Assembly (NCBI RefSeq): GCF_001570525.1
Contig: NZ_BBXC01000008.1
Coordinates: 709,841-773,840, forward strand
DNA length: 64,000 nt
Direction: 5' to 3'
Source: Herbidospora sakaeratensis
GTDB lineage: Bacteria > Actinomycetota > Actinomycetes > Streptosporangiales > Streptosporangiaceae
Position 1 is the first letter of the stretch, and the number at the start of each line of letters is the position of its first letter. Positions 33,670 to 47,819 of the stretch are shown here, piece after piece. Below the pieces are notes generated by a model. That model did not search any database, was not told where the DNA came from, and saw only the letters and a program-made list of their open reading frames with translations. The translations under genes and the position numbers were made by a program.

Positions 33670-35073
33670 CTAGTGGCTGAAGCGCTGGACCCGCCGCAGC
33701 TTGTTCATCGCGTCGAGGGCCGCGACCTTGTAGCACTCCGACAGGGTCGGGTAGTTGAAGACGGCGTCGACCAGGTAGTCGATGGTGCCGCCGCAGCCCA
33801 TGACGGCCTGGCCGATGTGCACCAGCTCGGTCGCCTGGGTGCCGAAGACGTGCACGCCGAGGAGGGTGCGGTCTTCGGGGGAGACCAGCAGCTTGAGCAT
33901 GCCGTGGGTGTCGCCGATGATCTGGCCGCGGGCCAGTTCGCGGTAGCGCGACAGGCCGGTCTCGAACGGGACGTGCGCGTCGGTGAGCTCGTCTTCGGTC
34001 GCGCCGACGAAGCTGATCTCGGGGATCGTGTAGATGCCGATCGGCTGCAGGCGGCTCATGTCGGAGACCGGTTCGTCGCACGCGTGGTAGGCCGCCAGAC
34101 GGCCCTGCTCCATCGACGTGGCGGCCAGGGCGGGGAAGCCGATGACGTCGCCGACGGCGTAGATGTGCGGGACGGCGGTGCGGTAGTGCTCGTCGACCGT
34201 GATCCGGCCGCGCGCGTCGGCCTCCAGGCCGGCGGTGTGCAGGGCGAGCGACTCGGTCATGCCCTGGCGGCCGGCCGAGTACATGACCGTGGCGGCCGGG
34301 ATCTTCTTGCCGCTCTCGAGGATCGTGAGGGCGCCGCGCTCGTGGCGTTCGACGGCGGCGACCGTCTCGCCGAACCGGAACGTGACGGCCAGGTCGCGCA
34401 GGTGGTACTTGAGCGCCTCGATGACCTCCAGGTCGCAGAACTCCAGCATGCGGTCGCGGCGTTCGACCACGGTGACCTTGGTGCCGAGGGCGGCGAACAT
34501 GGAGGCGTACTCGATGCCGATCACGCCGGCGCCGACGACGACCATCGAGTCGGGCACGTGGTCGAGCTGGAGGATGCCGTCGGAGTCGATGATCGTGGAG
34601 CCGTCGAACTCGACGCTGTCGGGGCGCGCGGGGCGGGTGCCGGTGGCGACGATGATCTTGTCGGCGGTGACCTTCGTCTCCCGGCCCCGGTCGTCGATCA
34701 CCGCGATGGTGTGGGGGTCGAGGAACTGGCCGGAGCCGGTCAGCGTGGTGATGCGGTTGCGGGACAGCTGGTTGCGGATCACCTCGACCTCGCGGCCCAC
34801 GACGTGGGTGGTGCGGGCGGTCAGGTCGGCGATGCCGATCTCTTCCTTGACGCGGTAGTTGCGGCCGTACATCTCGCGCTGGCTGAGGCCGGTCAGGTAG
34901 AGCACGGCCTCGCGCATGGTCTTGGAGGGGATCGTGCCGGTGTTGATGCACACCCCGCCGATCATGTTGCGCCGCTCGACGATCGCTACCCGGCGCTCCA
35001 GCTTGGCGGCCGCGATGGCGGCCTTCTGCCCACCCGGCCCGGATCCCAGGACGAGTACATCAAAGTCGCTCAC
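33670..35073 (-). CDS. sthA: Soluble (Si-specific) NAD(P) transhydrogenase
   Basis: A 467-residue cytosolic flavoprotein that exchanges reducing equivalents between NADPH and NAD+. FAD motif [18 protein letters not shown] is at the N-terminus. The active-site region reads [14 protein letters not shown]: the second cysteine of related disulfide reductases is replaced by Thr, as in SthA. NAD(P) motif [20 protein letters not shown] (read as two parts), FAD motif [15 protein letters not shown] and the C-terminal dimerisation domain with [13 protein letters not shown] follow. GTG 35073 is chosen; no clear ribosome site. It stands alone, convergent with the sugar dehydrogenase gene. Confidence 0.93.
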
Positions 35074-35232
35074 ACCTAGCAGTGTGGTCGCTGCGACCAG
35101 CGACGAGAAGACCTTGACCGGCTTCACCGGACAATTGGCCGGGTTGTGCGGCGGCGGCAACGTGACGGCCACCATACCGGTGCAATCGGGAGACAAGCAG
35201 ACATCAAGCGGGCTCCGCCAGGATCGGGCCCC

Positions 35233-35646: not shown

Positions 35647-37722
35647 TTGGCAGTGCCACAGCCGCTCCGCGATCCCCGCCGGCTCGGCGGCCACACCCTG
35701 GTCGGCGCGTACCCGCCGGGTGATCGGTCCGCCTCGTTCGAGACGGGCGACGGCGCCCTGCTGACGCTGTTCCACACCCGCCTGCCCGACCCCGACGCCT
35801 TCCTCGAACGCGTCGACGAACTCCAGCGCGCGGGCGGCTACCCGTGGTTGTCGCTGCTGGACGCCGGCACCTCCGGCGGCGAGCCCTACGTGGTGGTCGA
35901 GAAGGTCGACGGCCGCCATCTGGACGACGCCCTCCCGGAGAGCGACGCCCAGCGCCTGGCCATCGCCTCGATGACGGGCCTCGCCGGCCTCCACCGCGAA
36001 GGCGTGGCCCACGGCTCGTTCACCCCGTGGTCGGTGATCCTCACCGGCGCGGGCCCCCGGCTCGCCCTCCTCGACCTCGACGCCCTGGTGACGGAGGGGG
36101 TCACCAGAAGCACCCGGTCCGCCGCCTCGGCCGCCCCTTCCCCGGCAACCGAGACCGGCGACCCGGATGCCACGGCGCGGGTCGACGGCCGCGGGGCCGC
36201 GACGGCCGAGGCCAACGACCCCGACGCGACCGCCCGGGTGGCCGAGCGGGTCGCCACGTGGCCCAAGACCGAGACCGGCCCGGACTCCCCCGCCGACGAG
36301 ACGCGGCCCGTCGGGTCGCTCGCCTACCTGCCGCCCGAGGCGTTACGTCCCGACCCTCGGCCGCCCGCGCCGCCCGGCGACCTGTTCGCCTGGGCCGCCG
36401 TCATGGTCTTCGCCGCCACCGGGCGGCACGCGTTCGAGCGCGACTCCCCCGCCGCCACCATCAACGCCGTCCTCCACGACGATCCCGACCTCGGCGGGAT
36501 GCCCGAAGGGCTGGCGGGGGTCGTCGCGGCCTGTCTGGCCAAGGACCCCGGGCAGCGGCCGACCGCGCGGGAGGCGCTCGAACGGCTGATCGGCGAGACG
36601 CAGCTGACCATCGACCGGGCCACGCTCGACGTGGTCGCCACCCTTCCTCCGGCCGAGCCGGAGGAGACCGAGCCCGCCGTCCCGCCATTGCCGCCCCGCC
36701 GGGGGCCCAACTGGGTCGCCGTCACCGCCGCCGCCGTCGCGATCGTGCTGGTCGCCGGGCTGGGCGGCTACCTGCTCGGCGGCACCAAGACCGGCGCGGC
36801 GGCCGCCCCGGCGGCCGCGACCGGCGTGCCCTCGACCTCGGTCAGCACGCTGGCCGCCGTCGACGACCCGGCTCCCCCGCCGCCCGCCGTCGGCGGCTTC
36901 ACCGCTCCCGGGCCGGCCATCACGCTGCGGGAGAACCCCGCCGACCCGGCCCGGCTCACCGGCTACCGCAGGGGCGCCGACACGTGGGTGCGCGCCGAGG
37001 GCGACGCCTTCACCGAGCTGCCGGGCGAGGACCTCGAACCGGCCCGCGCACCCGGCGGGAAGTGGCTCGCCGCGGTGGGCCCAGAGACCATCACGTTCAC
37101 CGGCGCCGGTGAACCCTTCACGGTCACCCCCGGCGTCGCGTACACCCGCCCGACCTGGTCGCGCGACGGGGCGAAGCTGATGCTCACGACCACCTCCGGC
37201 GAGGAGGGCCGCCCGGCCGGGTTCGTCGTCGTCGACGTCGCCACCCGGGCCGTCTCCACCGTCGACACCGACGACGAGACGACCGGCGGCGAAGGGCACT
37301 TCGCCTGGTTGCCCGACGGTTCGGGCGTCGTGGTCGGCTACCGGACCGAGACCGAGCACGGGATCAGGTTGCGCGACCTCACCGGCGACCTGACCAAGTC
37401 CTACCACTGGGTGGGCGAGACCTACGGGCGGCGCATGTTCTCGCCGTCCGGGAAGACGTTCGTGACGTTCTGCCCGAGCGGCGGCACGTACTGCGTCTGG
37501 GACACCGCGACCGGGGTGCGGCAGGCGTCGATCGCGCTGTTCTACCCCGACGGCCTCCTGTACGGCTGGTACGACGACGCCCACCTGATCGTCGCCGACC
37601 CGCGCGAGGACCCGCACAAGATCGTGGCCATGGACCTGCGCGGCCGGCCGCAGCGGGTGCTGGCCGAGATCCCGCCCAAGGACGACACGACCGACCTGCT
37701 CCTCTACTACACGGGGAACTGA
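35647..37722 (+). CDS. Receptor pseudokinase with extracellular propeller-like domain
   Basis: A 691-residue protein with the outline of a PknB-type receptor kinase: kinase-like domain 1-315, Pro-rich linker, one helix at about 356-377, and an extracellular half with SRDGAKLMLTT, SPSGKTFVTF and CVWDTATG propeller-like blades. The catalytic residues are lost: the beta-3 Lys position reads LLTLFHT, HRD is HGS (122-124) and DFG is DLD (143-145). The C-lobe (DLFAWAAVMVFAATG, CLAKDPGQRPTA) is well kept, so the fold is probably intact. TTG 35647 follows GGAGG by 6 nt. Tandem with the next two kinase-like genes. Confidence 0.85.
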   Translation: MAVPQPLRDPRRLGGHTLVGAYPPGDRSASFETGDGALLTLFHTRLPDPDAFLERVDELQRAGGYPWLSLLDAGTSGGEPYVVVEKVDGRHLDDALPESDAQRLAIASMTGLAGLHREGVAHGSFTPWSVILTGAGPRLALLDLDALVTEGVTRSTRSAASAAPSPATETGDPDATARVDGRGAATAEANDPDATARVAERVATWPKTETGPDSPADETRPVGSLAYLPPEALRPDPRPPAPPGDLFAWAAVMVFAATGRHAFERDSPAATINAVLHDDPDLGGMPEGLAGVVAACLAKDPGQRPTAREALERLIGETQLTIDRATLDVVATLPPAEPEETEPAVPPLPPRRGPNWVAVTAAAVAIVLVAGLGGYLLGGTKTGAAAAPAAATGVPSTSVSTLAAVDDPAPPPPAVGGFTAPGPAITLRENPADPARLTGYRRGADTWVRAEGDAFTELPGEDLEPARAPGGKWLAAVGPETITFTGAGEPFTVTPGVAYTRPTWSRDGAKLMLTTTSGEEGRPAGFVVVDVATRAVSTVDTDDETTGGEGHFAWLPDGSGVVVGYRTETEHGIRLRDLTGDLTKSYHWVGETYGRRMFSPSGKTFVTFCPSGGTYCVWDTATGVRQASIALFYPDGLLYGWYDDAHLIVADPREDPHKIVAMDLRGRPQRVLAEIPPKDDTTDLLLYYTGN

Positions 37723-37728
37723 ACCCTG

Positions 37729-39639
37729 ATGCCTCCCGTCGAGCCGCTCACCCCGCAGGACCCGGCCTCGCTCGGCCCCTATCCCCTGGTGGGCCGTCTG
37801 GGCGGGGACGTCTATCTGGCCACCGCGCCCGGCGGCGAACAGGTGGCCGCGCGCAGGCTCGCCCGGCCGCTCGACGCGCCCGGACGCGAGGCGCTGGCCC
37901 GCGTCTGGGAGGCCGCGGCCGTCGGCACGCCGCACATCCTGGACACCGGGCGCGACTACATCGTGTCCGAGTACGTGCCGGGGCCCAGCCTGGCCGAGGA
38001 GATCGCCGAGCGGGGCGCGCTGGCCGGGCCCGCGCTGCACCGGCTCGCCGTCGCCACGGCGACCGCGCTGGCCTCCCTCCACCGGGCCGGGCTCACCCAC
38101 GACGCCATCGCGCCCGGACGGGTGCTGCTCGGGCCCGACGGGCCCCGGCTGATCGGGGCCGAACGGCCGGTCACGCCCGCCTGGCGGGCCGACGACGCCC
38201 AGGAGCTCTGGCAGGACCCCGACGAGCCGCCGGGCCCCGCCGCCGACGTGTTCGCGTGGGCGGCGGTGATCGCGTTCGCCGCGACCGGGCGGCCGCCGTT
38301 CGGGGAGAACCCGACACGCGTCTCGTACGGGGCGGCCGACCTCGGGCCGCTCTCGGGGTCGCTGCGCGACCTGGTCGCCGACTGTCTCGCCGACGAGCCC
38401 GCCGCCCGGCCGGGGGCCGAGGAGACGCTGCTCCGGCTGCTCGGCCACGCGGGGGCGCTCGACACGGTGCTGCCCGCCACCGCGCCCCGGGTGGTCGTGG
38501 CGCCCGAGGTCGGCGTGAGCCGTACAGTCCCCGAGAAGAGACGGAAGGGCGGCGCGGTCGCCCTCGCGGCGGGCGGGCTGGCGCTGGCGCTGGTGTCCGG
38601 CGCGGGAGGGTACCTGCTCGCGCCCGCTCCGGCCCCGCAGGCGCGGAAGCCGGCGCCGAGCGCCGCGCCGACCGCGCGCCCGGCCGCGTTCCCCTCGCCG
38701 GGGCCGTCGCCGCTGGCCCTGACCGGCGGGGTGCTGAACGAGCGGCCCGGCGATCCGCTGCGGCTGGCCTCCTACCGGGCCAGCGTGTCGGCCGACGCGA
38801 CGGCGGCGTTCGCGCGCAGCCGCGACGGCGCGGGCTTCGACCGGACCGGCGGCGACAACCACGTCTCGGTCGTCTCGCCCGACGGCCGCTGGACGGCCAC
38901 GATCGACGAGTTGTTCGTGGCCAGCACGGAGCGGCTCGACGTCGAGTTCACCGACCGGGCGAGCGGCCGGCGGTTCACCGTGCCGACCGTCTCCGCGCCG
39001 CTGAGCGCGCACAATCCGGCCTGGTCGCCCGACGGGACCCGGCTGCTGCTGTCGTTGTGGGTCAGCCAGGGCGCGACCGACGTCGTGCCCTTCGGGTTCG
39101 TGGTCGTCGACCCCGCCACCCGCGCGGCCACCGTCGTGGAGACCGCCAACGACGCCGACCGCGACGCGTTCCTGGCCGCCGACCCCGAGGCGCGGCTCGG
39201 CGCGCTGCCCGCCTTCCGGTGGACGCCCGACGGCCGCGAGGTCGCCACCGCCTACCTGACCCCCGAGGGCCGGTACGGCGTGCGCTTCCACGACCTGACC
39301 GGACGTGTACTGCGCGGTTTCCACTGGGTGGGGCTGCCGGCCGGGACGTCCTGGTTCTCCCCCGACGGGCGGTCGTTCGTGACGACCCAGTGCGAGAAAC
39401 GGCACGTCTTCTGCGTCTGGGACACCGCCACCGGCGCGCGCCGGGGCGGCGTGCCCTCCGGGAAGGGCGACGGCATGCTCGGCTGGTTCGACGCCACCCA
39501 CCTGCTCTACTCGCGGGAGGAGAAGGGCGAGTACCGCGCCGACGTGATCGACTTCGCCGGCGAGACCACCCGGACCCTGGTCGAGCTCGACCTGCCCGGC
39601 GACGACCCCCTCGTGCAGTTGTTCTTCCTGCGGAGCTGA
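37729..39639 (+). CDS. Second receptor pseudokinase with propeller-like exterior
   Basis: A 636-residue paralogue of its neighbours: kinase-like domain 1-245, helix at about 275-298, Pro/Ala linker, then an extracellular domain with SPDGRWTATI, SPDGTRLLLSL, SPDGRSFVTTQ and CVWDTATGARRG. Catalytic motifs are degraded in a different way from the first: VAVK is VAAR (39-42), HRD is HDA (124-126) and DFG is GAE (143-145). The C-lobe ADVFAWAAVIAFAATG is kept. It starts 7 bp after the first pseudokinase stop and ends 5 bp before the active kinase. Confidence 0.85.
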   Translation: MPPVEPLTPQDPASLGPYPLVGRLGGDVYLATAPGGEQVAARRLARPLDAPGREALARVWEAAAVGTPHILDTGRDYIVSEYVPGPSLAEEIAERGALAGPALHRLAVATATALASLHRAGLTHDAIAPGRVLLGPDGPRLIGAERPVTPAWRADDAQELWQDPDEPPGPAADVFAWAAVIAFAATGRPPFGENPTRVSYGAADLGPLSGSLRDLVADCLADEPAARPGAEETLLRLLGHAGALDTVLPATAPRVVVAPEVGVSRTVPEKRRKGGAVALAAGGLALALVSGAGGYLLAPAPAPQARKPAPSAAPTARPAAFPSPGPSPLALTGGVLNERPGDPLRLASYRASVSADATAAFARSRDGAGFDRTGGDNHVSVVSPDGRWTATIDELFVASTERLDVEFTDRASGRRFTVPTVSAPLSAHNPAWSPDGTRLLLSLWVSQGATDVVPFGFVVVDPATRAATVVETANDADRDAFLAADPEARLGALPAFRWTPDGREVATAYLTPEGRYGVRFHDLTGRVLRGFHWVGLPAGTSWFSPDGRSFVTTQCEKRHVFCVWDTATGARRGGVPSGKGDGMLGWFDATHLLYSREEKGEYRADVIDFAGETTRTLVELDLPGDDPLVQLFFLRS

Positions 39640-39644
39640 CCTCC

Positions 39645-41309
39645 GTGGAGGGCACCCGGCTGGGCGGCTACACGATCCTGCGGACCCTGGGGGCCGGCGG
39701 GCAGGGCACCGTCTACCTCGCCGCCGCGCCCGACGGCGGGCAGGTGGCGGTGAAGGTGCTGCACGCGGTGCCGGAGGACGGTTCGGCCGAACGTTTCCTG
39801 CGCGAGGCCGAGGTGCTGCCGGAGGTGGCGTCGTTCTGCGCGGCGCAGGTGCTCGGGTTCGGGGTGGCGGACGGCGTGCCGTACATCGCCAGCGAGTACG
39901 TCGAAGGGCCGACGCTCCAGGCCCTGGTCAGGGAGCGCGGCCCGCTGGCCGGGGGCCCGCTGCGGTCGGTGGCCGTCGGCACCATCACCGCGTTGTCGGC
40001 CATCCACCGGGCCGGGGTGGTGCACCTCGACTTCAAGCCCGCGAACGTGATCCTCGGCCGCGACGGCCCCCGGGTGATCGACTTCGGCATCGCCCGGGCC
40101 GTGGACGCCGAGGCGACCGGCACCGGGGCGGTCGGCACCCCCACCTACATGGCGCCCGAGCAGCTCGGCGAGACGCCACCCGGCCCCGCGGCCGACGTGT
40201 TCGCGTGGGCGGCGACGGTGGTGTTCGCGGCGTCCGGGACGCCGCCGTTCGGGGCCGACACGGTGCCGGCGGTGCTGAACCGGCTGCTGCGCGGCCAGCC
40301 CGACCTCGGCCCGCTGACCGGGGACCTGCGCGAGGTGGTCGCGGCCTGCCTGGTCAAGGACCCGCTCGCCCGGCCGGCCTCCTCCGACGTGTTGTTGCGG
40401 CTGCTCGGGCGGGCGCCGGCGGCCTCCCGGCGGATCGGGCGGCGGATTCTGGTCGCCGGGGCGGCGCTGGCCGTCGCGGCCGCCGCCGCCGGGGTGGCGG
40501 TGTGGGCGTCGCGGCCCGAGCCGCCCCGGTCGTCGGGCCCGCCGTCGGCGGCCTTCACCTCTGTCGAGGTGCCCGAGTTGCCGGGGTTTCTGCACGAGCA
40601 CGCGTCCGACCCGGTCCGGCTCACGTCGTTCAGTGTCAGTACGTCCGTGACGAGCATCCGGTCGTATGTGCGCTCGCGTGACTCCTTCGCGCCGACCGGA
40701 CGGCAGCGGCATCCGGTCGTGTCGCCCGACGGGACGACCCTGGCGGAGGTCAACTGGGCGCCCCGGTCGGCGGCCGACGGGAACGCGGTGACGTTCACAC
40801 GGGACGGGGCGACGTTCGCCGTGCCGACCGTGGAGCCGCCGCTGGCGGTGCGGTCTCCTGTCTGGTCCGGGGACGGGGGGCGGGTGCTGCTGACCGTGTG
40901 GTCGGAGGAGGGGCGGACGGGGTTCGTGCTCGTGGACGTGGCCGCCCGGCGGTCGGCCTATGTCAGCGTGGGTTCGCCGGAGACGGATTTCGCCTTCGGG
41001 CCCGGCGCGACCGTGACGTCCGGCGGGGTGGTGTACGGCGCGGATGGGACCCGGTCCCGGGCCTACGACGGAATGTCCAGCCTGGTCTTCTCGCCCTCGG
41101 GGCGGCGGTATGCGGGGGCCTGCGCGTCGGGGATCTGCGCTCCCGGACCTTTCAGGTCGTCGGGCGAGGTGATCGGCTGGTTCAACGAGGACACCCTGAT
41201 CGTGCGCGACGGGCGCAGGGTGCTCGCGGTGGACGCGACCAGCGGGGCCACCCGACGGACCCTCGCCGACCTGAACTCGGACCAGGAAACGATCATCCAT
41301 TACTCATGA
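39645..41309 (+). CDS. Receptor Ser/Thr protein kinase with extracellular propeller-like domain
   Basis: A 554-residue kinase with all catalytic motifs: glycine loop GAGGQGTV (16-23), K37 in VAVK, HLDFKPAN (127-134, D129), DFG (146-148) and MAPE. One helix (ILVAGAALAVAAAAAGVAVW) lies near 268-290, followed by an extracellular part with SPDGTTLAEV and SPSGRRYAG blades. GTG 39645 has CGGAG 9 nt upstream and lies just after the second pseudokinase stop. It is the only member of the triplet expected to phosphorylate, and the adjoining pseudokinases may form receptor complexes with it (inference). Confidence 0.9.
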   Translation: MEGTRLGGYTILRTLGAGGQGTVYLAAAPDGGQVAVKVLHAVPEDGSAERFLREAEVLPEVASFCAAQVLGFGVADGVPYIASEYVEGPTLQALVRERGPLAGGPLRSVAVGTITALSAIHRAGVVHLDFKPANVILGRDGPRVIDFGIARAVDAEATGTGAVGTPTYMAPEQLGETPPGPAADVFAWAATVVFAASGTPPFGADTVPAVLNRLLRGQPDLGPLTGDLREVVAACLVKDPLARPASSDVLLRLLGRAPAASRRIGRRILVAGAALAVAAAAAGVAVWASRPEPPRSSGPPSAAFTSVEVPELPGFLHEHASDPVRLTSFSVSTSVTSIRSYVRSRDSFAPTGRQRHPVVSPDGTTLAEVNWAPRSAADGNAVTFTRDGATFAVPTVEPPLAVRSPVWSGDGGRVLLTVWSEEGRTGFVLVDVAARRSAYVSVGSPETDFAFGPGATVTSGGVVYGADGTRSRAYDGMSSLVFSPSGRRYAGACASGICAPGPFRSSGEVIGWFNEDTLIVRDGRRVLAVDATSGATRRTLADLNSDQETIIHYS

Positions 41310-41325
41310 CCGACCCCGGCTGGTC

Positions 41326-41363
41326 CCGGGCGATCAAGCCGGCTGGTCACGCTGATCGCCCGG
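41326..41363. terminator. Bidirectional hairpin terminator
   Basis: CCGGGCGATCA (41326-41336) pairs perfectly with TGATCGCCCGG (41353-41363), an 11-bp stem with a 16-nt loop that holds its own AGCCGGCT palindrome. It lies between the kinase stop at 41309 and the convergent small gene ending at 41372. Confidence 0.7.
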
Positions 41364-41371
41364 AACTCTGG

Positions 41372-41611
41372 TCAGGCCATCACTCGGTCGACGATCTCCG
41401 AGGCGCCCATCGAGCGGGCGCAGTGGGCGCCGCAGAACCACTTGCGGTCGGCCTCCACGCCGTGGCCGATGATGCGGCAGCCACAGTGTTCGCAGATCGG
41501 CGCCATCCTGGTGATCGCGCACTCGAAGCTGTCGAAGGTGTGGACGGCCCCCTGGGCGTGCACCTCGAACGTCATGTCGTAGTCGTTTCCGCATACTTCG
41601 CAAGCGGCCAT
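41372..41611 (-). CDS. Small Cys-rich zinc-ribbon/metallothionein-like protein
   Basis: A 79-residue cytosolic protein with eight Cys and several His: C4-x2-C7, C31, C40-x2-C43-x-C45, C60 and C64, plus H42, H50 and H63. The spacing suggests two treble-clef or metallothionein-like zinc sites. Similar small proteins in actinobacteria are annotated as metallothionein-like; the job is unknown. ATG 41611 has GGGGGGAA upstream. It lies 50 bp downstream of the Pro-rich membrane protein gene and may be read with it. Confidence 0.8.
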   Translation of the reverse strand: MAACEVCGNDYDMTFEVHAQGAVHTFDSFECAITRMAPICEHCGCRIIGHGVEADRKWFCGAHCARSMGASEIVDRVMA

Positions 41612-44973: not shown

Positions 44974-46245
44974 TCAGCCGATTCCGGCCGCGACCAGCTG
45001 GGCGGCCTGGCGGGCGCGCTCCCTGGTGTCGTCGCCGGGCGACTTGTAGGTGACCTGGGCGGACAGGTTGCTTCTCCGGAACCAGACGGTGGCGCCGCCG
45101 TCGGCGGGCGCCACGTAGGCCTCGTCGGCGACGCCGGTGAGGTTCTCGGCGCCGTCGGGGCGGGCGGGGGCGGCTCCGGTGGTCAGGCGGTAGCCCACGA
45201 CCACTTCGGTTCCGCCGGAGCGGTTGATCCAGCGGCAGCCGCCGTCGGGCGTGGGTTCGGCGTTGGCCTGGGTGCCGAGCAGGTGGGTGATCTGCGCGGT
45301 GGTCAGCGACGTGCAGGCGTCGGGGGCGGCGGTGAAGCGGGCCGGCACGTCGTCCGGCCCGGCCGCGAACCGGGACGCGGCCCAGCCCGCGCCGACGCCG
45401 AGGGCGATCGTGAGGGCGGCGCCGATCGCCCAGCGGCCGGTCCGGCGCGAGCGCGGGGGCACCGCGGCGACGGCGTCTCTGAGCAGGTGGCGGGTGGTCG
45501 CGGCCGGAGGGCGGTGGGCGGGGTCCTTGGCGAGGAGCGCGCCGACCGCGCGGGCCAGCGCGGGGGTCGCCTGCGCCATCGGGGGCGGGTCGTGCATGAC
45601 GACGGCCGCCACCACGGCGGCGGGCAGGTTGCGGTGGAAGGGGCCCCGGCCCTCCACGGCCGCGTAGAGGGTCGCGCCGAGCGACCACAGGTCCGACGGC
45701 GGGCCGGCGGGCAGGCCGCGGAACCGTTCGGGGGCCATGTACGCCGGCGACCCCGAGCTGTCGGCCGGGTCGGCCCCGAACGGGGCGGCGATGCCGAAGT
45801 CGGCCAGCATCGCCCGGCCGTCGTCGCCGACGAGCACGTTGGCCGGTTTGACGTCGCGGTGCAGGATGCCGTGGGCGTGCGCGAGTTCGAGGGCGTCGAG
45901 GATCGACAGGCCGATCTCGGCGACCCGGGTGCTCGGCAGCGGCAGCAGCTTGTCGAGGGACGTTCCCGGCACCAGGTCCATCACGATCCACGGCGCGCCG
46001 TCGTGGGGCACCACGTCGTGGATCTTGACGATCGAGGGGTGGTTGAGCCGCCCGGCGGCCCGCGCCTCCCCGATCGCGCGGGAGGTGTACTCGGCCAGCT
46101 CACCGGGCCCGAGGTCGCTGGGCGTGCGCATCTGTTTGACGGCGACCTCGCGCCGCAGCAGTTCGTCGTGGGCACGCCAGACGGTGCCCGCGCCGCCCTT
46201 CCCGAGGGGTTCGGCGAGCCGGTAGCGGCCGGCGAGCAGGGTCAC
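44974..46245 (-). CDS. Receptor Ser/Thr protein kinase with DUF3558-like sensor
   Basis: A 423-residue PknB-type kinase with complete motifs: GKGGAGTV, K37 in VAVK, HRDVKPAN (129-136), DFG (149-151) and APER. A helix at about 271-291 leads to a short exterior with ACTSLTTAQITHLLGTQ and GGCRWIN (C311 and C337 with W339), the same module as in its two operon partners. GTG 46245 overlaps the upstream kinase stop as GTGA; the GTG at 46257 would add four residues and is less likely. Confidence 0.9.
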   Translation of the reverse strand: MTLLAGRYRLAEPLGKGGAGTVWRAHDELLRREVAVKQMRTPSDLGPGELAEYTSRAIGEARAAGRLNHPSIVKIHDVVPHDGAPWIVMDLVPGTSLDKLLPLPSTRVAEIGLSILDALELAHAHGILHRDVKPANVLVGDDGRAMLADFGIAAPFGADPADSSGSPAYMAPERFRGLPAGPPSDLWSLGATLYAAVEGRGPFHRNLPAAVVAAVVMHDPPPMAQATPALARAVGALLAKDPAHRPPAATTRHLLRDAVAAVPPRSRRTGRWAIGAALTIALGVGAGWAASRFAAGPDDVPARFTAAPDACTSLTTAQITHLLGTQANAEPTPDGGCRWINRSGGTEVVVGYRLTTGAAPARPDGAENLTGVADEAYVAPADGGATVWFRRSNLSAQVTYKSPGDDTRERARQAAQLVAAGIG

Positions 46246-47738
46246 GCGTGACCCCACAGCGTGTCGGCCGCGGCGCGGGCGGCGGTCTCGGCGCCCGAGC
46301 GGAGCTGGTCGGCGGTGCGGTCGCCCAGGTCGGCGTACTCGACGCGGCCGACGAAGTCGCCGACGCGGAAGTAGACGTCGACGGCGATCATCCGGCCCTC
46401 GGAGGAGGTGACGTCCCAGGTGAACGCCTCCTCGCCGACGCCGGTGAGCGGGCGGATCGCCGAGGTGACGGTGGTGATGCGGCGTTTGGTGCCGATCTCG
46501 TACCAGATGAGGGACGAGTCACGGGGCATGTTGGCGATGCGGCGCTGGATGCCGCCGTACAGGGAGCGGGCCGCTTCGGGGTCGAGGTCCCACCAGTCGG
46601 GGGTGTCGGAGTCGGTGGCGGGTTCGAGGCGCAGGCCGGTGCCCTCGACCGTCCACTGGCAGCCGCCCTCGATCTCCTTCGGCCGGGCGTCCTGCCCGAG
46701 CAGCGCCTTGACCTGGCCGGCGGAGACGACCCGGCATAAGTCGACCCGCTCGGTGAACACCGGCGCGGGCGGCCGCTGCGCCGTGGGGGCGGCCGCGCCG
46801 CCGGACTCCCAGGGCGCGACGAGCACCACGGCCGCCGCGACGACGGCCGCGGCCCCGGCGGCCACCGCGACCCACAACCCGTTGTTCTTCTTCCGGCGTA
46901 CCGGCGCGATGTCGGGGTTGCCGCCCCGGACGATCTCCTGGAACAGCCGCCCCGCGGTCGCGGCGTCGGGCCGGTCGGCCGGGTCGCGCGCCATCAGCCA
47001 GCTGACCAGGGCGCCCAGCGGCCCGCCGACCTGCGGCGCGGGCACCGGCGCGGTCAGCGTCGCCTGGATGACCTGCACGTGGCCGCCCCGGTACGGCGGC
47101 ACGCCCTCCAGCGCGGTGTACAGAGTCGCCCCGAGCGACCACAGGTCGGCGGCCGGCCCGCCGGGGTCGCCTTCGAGCCGCTCGGGCGCGATGAAGCCCG
47201 GGGAGCCGATCAGCATGCCGTCGCCGGTCAGGTTGGTCGTGTCGGCCTGCCGGGCGATGCCGAAGTCGGTCAGCACCACCCGCCCGTCGACGGTGAGGAA
47301 CACGTTCCCGGGCTTGACGTCGCGGTGCTGCACGCCGTGGGCGTGCGCGGCCGACAACGCGTCGACCATCCGGGCCCCGATCTCGGCCACCGCGCCCGGC
47401 TGGAGCCCGCCGTGGGCGGAGATCTCCGCCGACAGCGGCCGCCCGTTGAGCCGCTCCATGACGATCCAGGGCCGGCCGTCGGCGACCAGGACGTCGTGCA
47501 CGCTGACGACGGCCGGGTGCCGCAACCGTGCGGTCACCTCGGCCTCGCGCATCACGCGGGTGACGAGCTCCGCCCGCTCCCGCTCCCCCATCCCGTCGGG
47601 AATGCGCAGTTCCTTGACGGCGACCTCGCGGTCGAGCATCTCGTCACGGGCGAGCCAGACGGTGCCCATGCCACCGGAGCCGAGGGGACGCAGCAGGAGG
47701 TAGCGGGAGGCCAGTCGTTCCCCGATCGATTCGGCCAT
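46242..47738 (-). CDS. Receptor Ser/Thr protein kinase with DUF3558-like sensor
   Basis: A 498-residue PknB-type kinase. GSGGMGTV, K42 in VAVK, HRDVKPGN (138-145), DFG (158-160) and APER are all present; a helix lies at about 288-309. The exterior carries LCRVVSAGQVKALLGQD and GGCQWTV (C335, C360), the shared sensor module. It is the first gene of the kinase-kinase-Pro-rich operon. ATG 47738 has no ribosome site but lies 6 nt after TATTCT (47750-47745), pointing to a leaderless message; the longer start at 47819 would read through this promoter. Confidence 0.9.
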   Translation of the reverse strand: MAESIGERLASRYLLLRPLGSGGMGTVWLARDEMLDREVAVKELRIPDGMGERERAELVTRVMREAEVTARLRHPAVVSVHDVLVADGRPWIVMERLNGRPLSAEISAHGGLQPGAVAEIGARMVDALSAAHAHGVQHRDVKPGNVFLTVDGRVVLTDFGIARQADTTNLTGDGMLIGSPGFIAPERLEGDPGGPAADLWSLGATLYTALEGVPPYRGGHVQVIQATLTAPVPAPQVGGPLGALVSWLMARDPADRPDAATAGRLFQEIVRGGNPDIAPVRRKKNNGLWVAVAAGAAAVVAAAVVLVAPWESGGAAAPTAQRPPAPVFTERVDLCRVVSAGQVKALLGQDARPKEIEGGCQWTVEGTGLRLEPATDSDTPDWWDLDPEAARSLYGGIQRRIANMPRDSSLIWYEIGTKRRITTVTSAIRPLTGVGEEAFTWDVTSSEGRMIAVDVYFRVGDFVGRVEYADLGDRTADQLRSGAETAARAAADTLWGHA

Positions 47739-47744
47739 ACCGGG

Positions 47745-47750
47745 AGAATA
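47745..47750 (-). promoter_or_regulatory. -10 element of the kinase operon (leaderless)
   Basis: TATTCT on the minus strand, 6 nt before the ATG at 47738. A clear -35 at 17-18 bp is not seen; TTGACG lies about 30 bp upstream, too far to pair. Confidence 0.45.
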
Positions 47751-47819
47751 GCGAAACCGGACCGGCCCGAATTGACCATTCGTCAACCCCGGCCGCCTTC
47801 GGCGGTCCCGCCAGGGCAC

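What the first reader, a model, noticed from the sequence alone, without database searches (positions are those of the whole stretch)
35647..41309. Triplet of receptor kinases: two independently degraded pseudokinases and one active kinase
Three tandem paralogues share kinase fold, one helix and a propeller-like exterior ending in a CVWDTATG-type blade in two of them. The first has HGS/DLD and no beta-3 Lys; the second has VAAR, HDA and GAE; the third keeps K, HxD and DFG. Different losses with intact C-lobes suggest the inactive forms are maintained, possibly as allosteric or co-receptor partners of the third. I know of no described bacterial system with this layout.
Basis: partly seen in the sequence, partly recalled or inferred. 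Interest (0 to 1): 0.7.

Follow-up and report, generated by a model that had tools for sequence, protein, structure and literature searches.

The report
Dead co-receptors beside a live kinase
Some actinobacteria keep one or two catalytically dead copies of a membrane receptor kinase directly in front of a working copy, and the dead copies are preserved and carry a shared possible phosphorylation site, so they look like partners or targets of the live enzyme rather than decaying genes.

Summary
Three tandem receptor-like genes, T1 (35647-37722), T2 (37729-39639) and T3 (39645-41309), lie in a Herbidospora genome; T1 and T2 have lost catalytic residues, T3 keeps them. T1 and T2 are intact in 7 of 7 genus genomes, T3 in 6 of 7; H. 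yilanensis cleanly lacks only T3. The dead kinase lobes are under purifying selection: dN/dS T2 0.14-0.19, T1 0.24, T3 0.17-0.18, so simple decay is rejected. The triplet follows a wider family rule: the last gene of an array is intact in 29 of 29, upstream genes are degenerate in 42 of 43. First-slot genes carry a Thr-x-x-Val site with Arg/Lys inside the activation segment in 26 of 29, against 0 of 52 intact kinases (motif chosen on the same sequences). In Herbidospora T1 the site is copied in a variable insertion. Best reading: hetero-receptor modules in which dead co-receptors bind, and are phosphorylated by, the live kinase. That step is inferred; T1/T2 persisting without T3 in one species is the main evidence against it.

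The parts
35647..37722 (+). T1: receptor pseudokinase, 691 aa, TTG start behind a GGAGG; kinase-fold domain, hydrophobic stretch, propeller-like exterior
   Evidence: orthologues in 7 of 7 genus genomes
36160..36183 (+). first DPDATARV copy (T1 residues 172-179) in the activation-segment insertion
36217..36240 (+). second DPDATARV copy (T1 residues 191-198); same peptide, 6 of 8 codons differ synonymously from the first
36301..36312 (+). TRPV (T1 residues 219-222) just before GSLAYLPPE; the position where doublet first genes have T-R-x-V
37729..39639 (+). T2: receptor pseudokinase, 636 aa; glycine loop reduced, VAAR, HDA, GAE, no activation segment, no helix G in the model; exterior with a PD40 hit
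37729..37980 (+). T2 N-lobe, lowest dN/dS (0.144) of the 12 segments compared in the triplet
38314..38352 (+). T2 TRVSYGAADLGPL in place of the helix-G segment; YGAADLG also in T2 of Acrocarpospora and NEAU-GS5, but G034 T2 keeps a helix-G-like stretch
39645..41309 (+). T3: receptor kinase with all catalytic residues (K, E, HLD, KxxN, DFG), 554 aa, GTG start; exterior lacks the CVWDTATG strand
33670..35196 (-). neighbour: Si-specific NAD(P)+ transhydrogenase (sthA-like), shared with some other array loci
   Evidence: (NF003585, 679.9 bits, cut-off 465)
41372..41611 (-). neighbour: small Cys-rich gene, 79 aa, shared with some other array loci
   Evidence: no NCBIfam hit for my typed copy, which had dropped one residue

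Best explanation
A membrane hetero-receptor module. One or two propeller-bearing pseudokinases act as co-receptors and phospho-acceptor scaffolds for the active propeller kinase encoded last in the same unit. SHOWN: slot order, catalytic loss upstream and retention in the last gene, purifying selection on the dead domains, and an activation-segment T-x-x-V site found in degenerate first-slot genes and not in intact kinases. INFERRED: co-expression (genes 5-6 bases apart), association through kinase domains and exteriors, phosphorylation of the T-x-x-V threonines by T3, and use of those phosphothreonines to hold the complex or recruit FHA-domain proteins. In Herbidospora T1 the site is copied (0-3 copies of a DPDATARV-type motif per protein), which would make the dead activation loop a multi-site docking segment. 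T2, with neither activation segment nor helix G but a very conserved N-lobe, would act mainly through N-lobe contacts.
For: Last gene intact in 29 of 29; upstream genes degenerate in 42 of 43; stand-alone kinases of the family intact in 22 of 23 and 2 of 2 more. dN/dS of kinase lobes: T2 0.144 and 0.192, T1 0.240 and 0.243, T3 0.181 and 0.168. T-x-x-V site in 26 of 29 first-slot genes and 0 of 52 intact kinases (0 of 2 more); with one triplet genome each kept for Herbidospora and Acrocarpospora, 16 of 19 and 0 of 41. In the window the two DPDATARV copies differ at 6 of 8 codons, all synonymously. Leu/Val at +3 and acidic residues at -1 and -3 to -6 are enriched around threonines whose phosphorylation falls on PknA depletion in M. 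tuberculosis (PMC7164672, passage); the match here is partial (Asp at -4 and -2, Val at +3). [quoted passage not shown] PMC6180346 passages). With starts assigned by script, neighbouring genes overlap by 1 or 4 bases in five fetched loci. Genes group by slot in the propeller tree.
Against: H. yilanensis keeps open T1 and T2 with T3 deleted and no match to T3 above 53% identity; so the loss is recent or T3 is not the only partner. There T2 ratios are ordinary, while the T1 C-lobe (0.281) and exterior (0.278) ratios are the highest of seven species, by a small margin. No interaction or phosphorylation was shown. The motif was defined after seeing the same sequences, the genes are related, and one gene (L096 first) sits in both groups, so the Fisher p of 3e-18 is not a fair probability. 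The motif was counted anywhere from DFG to helix F: at the position before the P+1 loop, Herbidospora T1 has TRPV in 3, TRPI in 3 and ARPV in 1 of 7. T2 has the site in 4 of 14. L081 T1 has no DPDATARV-type copy. Codon differences between copies outside the window are mixed: L078 11 synonymous and 4 replacing over three pairs, L080 5 and 5, L082 0 and 2. One doublet has two intact kinases (L096). T3's exterior is the least constrained of the three (0.335). No partner gene such as an FHA protein or phosphatase was identified beside the arrays, but most neighbours were clustered without annotation.
Confidence: 0.47

Rival explanations
1. T1 and T2 are maintained pseudokinase receptors that work without T3, with other kinases or as ligand-binding scaffolds; the array reflects common descent and co-regulation.
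For: T1 and T2 persist with open frames in H. yilanensis without T3. T1's exterior is more constrained than T3's (0.230 and 0.335). The window's genome has 52 Pkinase matches at E up to 0.001, so other partners exist.
Against: An intact kinase is the last gene in 29 of 29 arrays that have one; the only degenerate genes without an intact neighbour are those of H. yilanensis, the contig-edge gene L180 and the chimera L184.
Confidence: 0.3
2. The dead-looking domains have another chemistry (AMPylation, glutamylation or Lys-independent phosphotransfer), as SelO and SidJ do.
For: Many doublet first genes keep the HxD Asp and an Asn or Asp at DFG while losing the beta-3 Lys or the helix-C Glu. Such chemistry is described for SelO and SidJ (PMC12599244 section 4).
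Against: T1 and T2 lack both the beta-3 Lys and the HRD Asp; T2 also lacks the activation segment, and the T2 of G034 shows no recognisable N-lobe.
Confidence: 0.1
3. The upstream pseudokinases are negative regulators or decoys that hold the live kinase inactive or compete for its ligand.
For: Fits the same gene order; loss of T3 with retention of T1/T2 is tolerable if they are harmless without it.
Against: Gives no reason for an activation-segment T-x-x-V site in first-slot genes and its copying in Herbidospora T1.
Confidence: 0.1
4. T1 and T2 are decaying duplicates.
For: Catalytic motifs are lost and differ between genera; T1 has a length-variable insertion.
Against: No internal stops in 7 of 7 T1 and 7 of 7 T2 genes; kinase-lobe dN/dS 0.14-0.24; slot-wise grouping across genera.
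Confidence: 0.03

Closest known systems
ActPs1 bacterial pseudokinases (review PMC12599244, section 6)
   Same: Actinobacterial; all three catalytic motifs substituted; about 60% lack helix G; often a PQQ-type domain behind the kinase domain. T2 resembles this
   Different: The exterior here has PD40/WD40-like, not PQQ, hits; T1 has helix G; the sections I read do not mention tandem dead and live receptor genes
ActPs3 / MviN (MurJ) pseudokinase of mycobacteria
   Same: Membrane protein with a dead kinase domain, phosphorylated by an active Ser/Thr kinase and binding an FHA protein
   Different: MviN is a flippase fusion, not a propeller receptor; its operon partners as listed are not kinase paralogues
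AfsK and PknD type bacterial kinases with a propeller part (propeller types recalled)
   Same: T3's best NCBIfam match is AfsK, 172.8 bits
   Different: Far below AfsK's cut-off of 1300 bits; I recall no dead paralogues in those operons
HER3/ErbB-type pseudokinase co-receptors of animals (recalled)
   Same: Dead receptor kinase phosphorylated by a live paralogue, as proposed here
   Different: Analogy only; other architecture, and no evidence that the layout is shared by descent

Membership tests
ActPs1 pseudokinases | Substitution of beta-3 Lys, HRD Asp and DFG Asp | tested here: met
   T2: R, A, G. For T1: T, S, and L or D depending on the alignment, so inconclusive for T1
ActPs1 pseudokinases | Helix G absent (about 60% of members) | tested here: met
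   T2 model: no helix between 170-186 (F) and 210-219 (H). T1 model has one at 268-277, so not met by T1
ActPs1 pseudokinases | PQQ_2 domain behind the kinase domain (many members) | tested here: not met
   No PQQ match in T1-T3; PD40 in T2 at 21.8 bits, cut-off 20.9; PD40 in 8 of 26 relatives and no PQQ family listed
ActPs1 pseudokinases | Family-specific residue constraints and tree position | not testable with these tools
   Family alignment and figures not held
ActPs2 pseudokinases | Lys to Arg, HRD Asp to Asn, DFG deletion, 32-aa insertion after beta-3 and ~250-aa activation-loop insertion | tested here: not met
   T2 has Arg but HDA and a shortened segment; T1 has Thr, HGS and a far shorter insertion
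ActPs3 / MviN | Activation-loop deletion and a membrane helix behind the pseudokinase domain | tested here: inconclusive
   T2 lacks the activation segment and has a hydrophobic stretch read by eye; no family alignment to test descent
AfsK | NCBIfam AfsK cut-off (1300 bits) | tested here: not met
   T3 172.8, T2 63.1, T1 44.5 bits
Active Ser/Thr kinase (T3) | beta-3 Lys, helix-C Glu, HxD Asp, Asn, DFG Asp | tested here: met
   KEHDKNDG in T3; same residues intact in 29 of 29 last-slot genes
Active Ser/Thr kinase (T3) | Catalytic activity | not testable with these tools
   Needs an assay

The most novel reading that the evidence does not exclude
A bacterial counterpart of pseudokinase co-receptor signalling: obligate hetero-receptor complexes of dead and live propeller kinases, in which dead activation loops have become phospho-docking segments and the docking motif has been multiplied within one genus to tune output.
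Probability: 0.33. Interest if true: 0.8.

Novelty: new variant of a known kind. Interest (0 to 1): 0.6.

Why it matters
Bacterial pseudokinases are many, and the held review calls them largely unexplored by experiment (PMC12599244, abstract and discussion). Here each dead receptor has a candidate partner next door, a candidate phosphosite found in degenerate copies and not in intact ones, a natural T3 deletion (H. yilanensis), a natural first/second-gene chimera (L184) and a doublet with both genes intact (L096). Together they make the question of what such a pseudokinase does directly testable.

Tried and rejected
Decay of T1/T2: rejected by open frames and dN/dS. Doublet pseudokinase as sister of the doublet live kinase: rejected by the AU test (p 0.018) but not by SH (0.073). 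One or several origins of the pseudokinases: not resolved. Naming the exterior fold by structure search: the 50 rows shown for each model were kinase folds, so 'propeller' rests on the strand pattern and weak PD40/WD40 hits; a second aligner was not available. Searching the family with n=150 failed twice and was done with n=60 and 70. The first AU run hit the time limit and was redone on 53 of 83 sequences. A conserved partner gene beside the arrays: only general neighbours were found. Unexplained: T2's N-lobe has the lowest dS (0.164; the other 11 segments 0.253-0.533).

Rows dropped before counting: loci L097-L102, L105 and L106 as duplicates of genomes held under other ids; frames with no kinase hit (L183, L204-L206 and the cut first frame of L103). 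Slots set by hand: L103 as slots 2 and 3, L082 as slots 1 and 2 of 3, L180 and L181 as one doublet split by contig ends. The 95 genes include H. galbida copies (L207, L208). Of the 92 matches listed, 72 lay in stretches fetched first; the other 20 were fetched and read (2 intact single kinases, 18 without a kinase hit, some at contig ends).

Changed on checking: the best explanation was lowered from 0.50 to 0.47, the novel case from 0.35 to 0.33 and the first rival raised from 0.27 to 0.30, because codon evidence for the copies holds well only in the window and L078, and T1 in H. yilanensis shows slightly raised ratios.
Full report
What is there. Three genes lie head to tail: T1 (35647-37722, 691 aa, TTG start), T2 (37729-39639, 636 aa) and T3 (39645-41309, 554 aa, GTG start). 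Each has a kinase-type domain, a linker with one hydrophobic stretch that I read by eye as a membrane helix, and a C-terminal exterior. AlphaFold2 models of T1 and T2 (mean pLDDT 69.5 and 77.5) show a kinase-like domain and a strand-rich, propeller-like exterior; the linkers are unreliable, and T3 was not modelled. The 50 Foldseek rows shown for each model are kinase folds, PknB first. Pfam Pkinase gives T3 123.3 bits; T1 and T2 fall just short of the cut-off (30.7 and 26.8 against 31.7).

Catalytic state. T1 has ALLTLF at beta-3 and HGS at HRD; its DFG is LLD or DLD depending on the gap. T2 has a reduced glycine loop, VAAR, HDA, GAE and no activation segment, and its model shows no helix G. 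T3 has all residues (KEHDKNDG, with HLD rather than HRD).

Conservation in the genus. T1 and T2 are open and full length in 7 of 7 genomes, T3 in 6 of 7. In H. yilanensis the DNA matching window 39650-41349 is missing while the two sides align at 90.8 and 88.5% identity; the best-scoring T3 match elsewhere there is 45% identical and none listed exceeds 53%. Mean pairwise dN/dS (Nei-Gojobori; 21 pairs, T3 15): T1 N-lobe 0.240, C-lobe with insertion 0.243, exterior 0.230; T2 0.144, 0.192, 0.316; T3 0.181, 0.168, 0.335; linkers 0.42-0.53. T2's dead domain is held as tightly as the live one, T1's somewhat less. In H. yilanensis the T2 ratios are ordinary; the T1 C-lobe (0.281) and exterior (0.278) ratios are the highest of seven, narrowly.

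Beyond the genus. Doublets share the plan, degenerate gene first and live kinase second, including a second array in the window's own genome (C7:788479-792119). A profile of the exterior finds the family in 25 of 70 sampled genomes of the same family (E up to 1e-25); in 79 genomes drawn from the class it finds 4, all of that family (E up to 1e-20).

The rule. Among 95 kinase-bearing genes of the family, upstream slots are degenerate in 42 of 43 (exception L096, both genes intact), last slots intact in 29 of 29, stand-alone genes intact in 22 of 23, plus 2 of 2 read later. The odd stand-alone gene, L184, is a chimera: its first ~60 residues match doublet first genes best, the rest doublet second genes. 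Keeping one triplet genome each for Herbidospora and Acrocarpospora leaves 22 of 23 and 19 of 19. These are related genes, not independent trials.

History. In a propeller tree of 83 sequences T1, T2, T3, most doublet first genes and most doublet second genes form separate well-supported clades; the pairs L089 and L095 fall outside these, and L096 groups with stand-alone genes. Deep branches are weak. On 53 of these sequences, AU tests do not reject a single pseudokinase clade, T1+T2, T2 plus doublet-first, T1+T3, T2+T3 or T1+T2+T3; only doublet-first plus doublet-second is rejected (p-AU 0.018; p-SH 0.073). Independent loss is neither shown nor excluded. With a crude gene caller, an sthA-like neighbour is shared by 5 of 22 array loci (two Herbidospora, NEAU-GS5, and the doublets L093 and L177) and a small Cys-rich gene by 4 of 22 (two Herbidospora, L093, L179); the Acrocarpospora and G034 triplets have other neighbours. 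So some triplets and doublets occupy the same chromosomal neighbourhood, and others do not.

A site of first-slot genes. Between DFG and helix F, first-slot genes carry T-R/K-x-V or T-x-R/K-V in 26 of 29, intact kinases in 0 of 52 and 0 of 2 more. Without it are L089 (segment deleted), L177 (TTRRMA) and L096 (the intact one, which is in both groups). T2-slot genes have it in 4 of 14. The motif was chosen on these same sequences, so this is a description, not a test. In doublet first genes it lies just before the P+1 loop; there Herbidospora T1 has TRPV in 3, TRPI in 3 and ARPV in 1 of 7, and further copies of the DPDATARV type in an insertion: 2, 1, 3, 1, 3, 0 and 2 in window, L077-L082. In the window the two copies are the same peptide with 6 of 8 codons changed synonymously. 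Elsewhere it is mixed: L078 11 synonymous and 4 replacing over three pairs, L080 5 and 5, L082 0 and 2. So selection on the repeat peptide is suggested, not shown. In M. tuberculosis, threonines whose phosphorylation falls on PknA depletion are enriched for acidic residues at -1 and -3 to -6, Leu/Val at +3 and basic residues at +4; the PknB set reached no significance (PMC7164672, passage). DPDATARV fits in part.

How it probably works. Shown: arrangement, constraint, shared site. Inferred: mixed complexes, sensing by the exteriors, phosphorylation of T1's dead activation segment by T3, and use of the phosphothreonines to hold or recruit partners such as FHA proteins. [quoted passage not shown] PMC6180346 passages). 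The strongest evidence against sole dependence on T3 is H. yilanensis.

Known or new. Bacterial pseudokinase families are described (PMC12599244: abstract and sections 4, 6, 7, 8, 13 and 14 read). T2 resembles ActPs1 but lacks its PQQ label, and descent could not be tested. I noticed no report of operons that pair dead and live receptor paralogues in the listings; of these papers I opened only PMC12599244, PMC7164672 and PMC6180346, the last two in passages. I file it as a new variant of a known kind.

Noticed in passing
G000:C7:788479-792119 (L086:7474-11132): A second array in the same genome: degenerate kinase (VVIR, HGD, DFG) followed by an intact one; matches in 6 of 7 genus genomes, none listed for H. 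yilanensis.
   Followed up: partly
L184:6733-8757: Stand-alone chimera: N-lobe of a doublet first gene fused in frame to the rest of a doublet second gene; looks like a deletion between tandem paralogues.
   Followed up: partly
L084:9153-10910: T2 of G034: after the end of T1 its frame has no recognisable N-lobe but keeps C-lobe, linker and exterior; the frame stays open upstream over T1's 3' end.
   Followed up: partly
L183, L204-L206, L209-L223, L226: Propeller-type genes, mostly about 300-400 aa, without a kinase hit, related to the receptor exteriors; some are cut by contig ends.
   Followed up: no
window 37729-37980: T2 N-lobe has the lowest synonymous divergence (dS 0.164) of the 12 segments compared in the genus; possible extra constraint on DNA or RNA.
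   Followed up: no
window 40545-41309: T3's exterior is shortened and lacks the CVWDTATG strand, but keeps both cysteines that are invariant in the 18 aligned exteriors.
   Followed up: no
window 44974-47819, minus strand: Two more Ser/Thr kinase genes with canonical VAVK, HRD and DFG motifs, outside this family.
   Followed up: no
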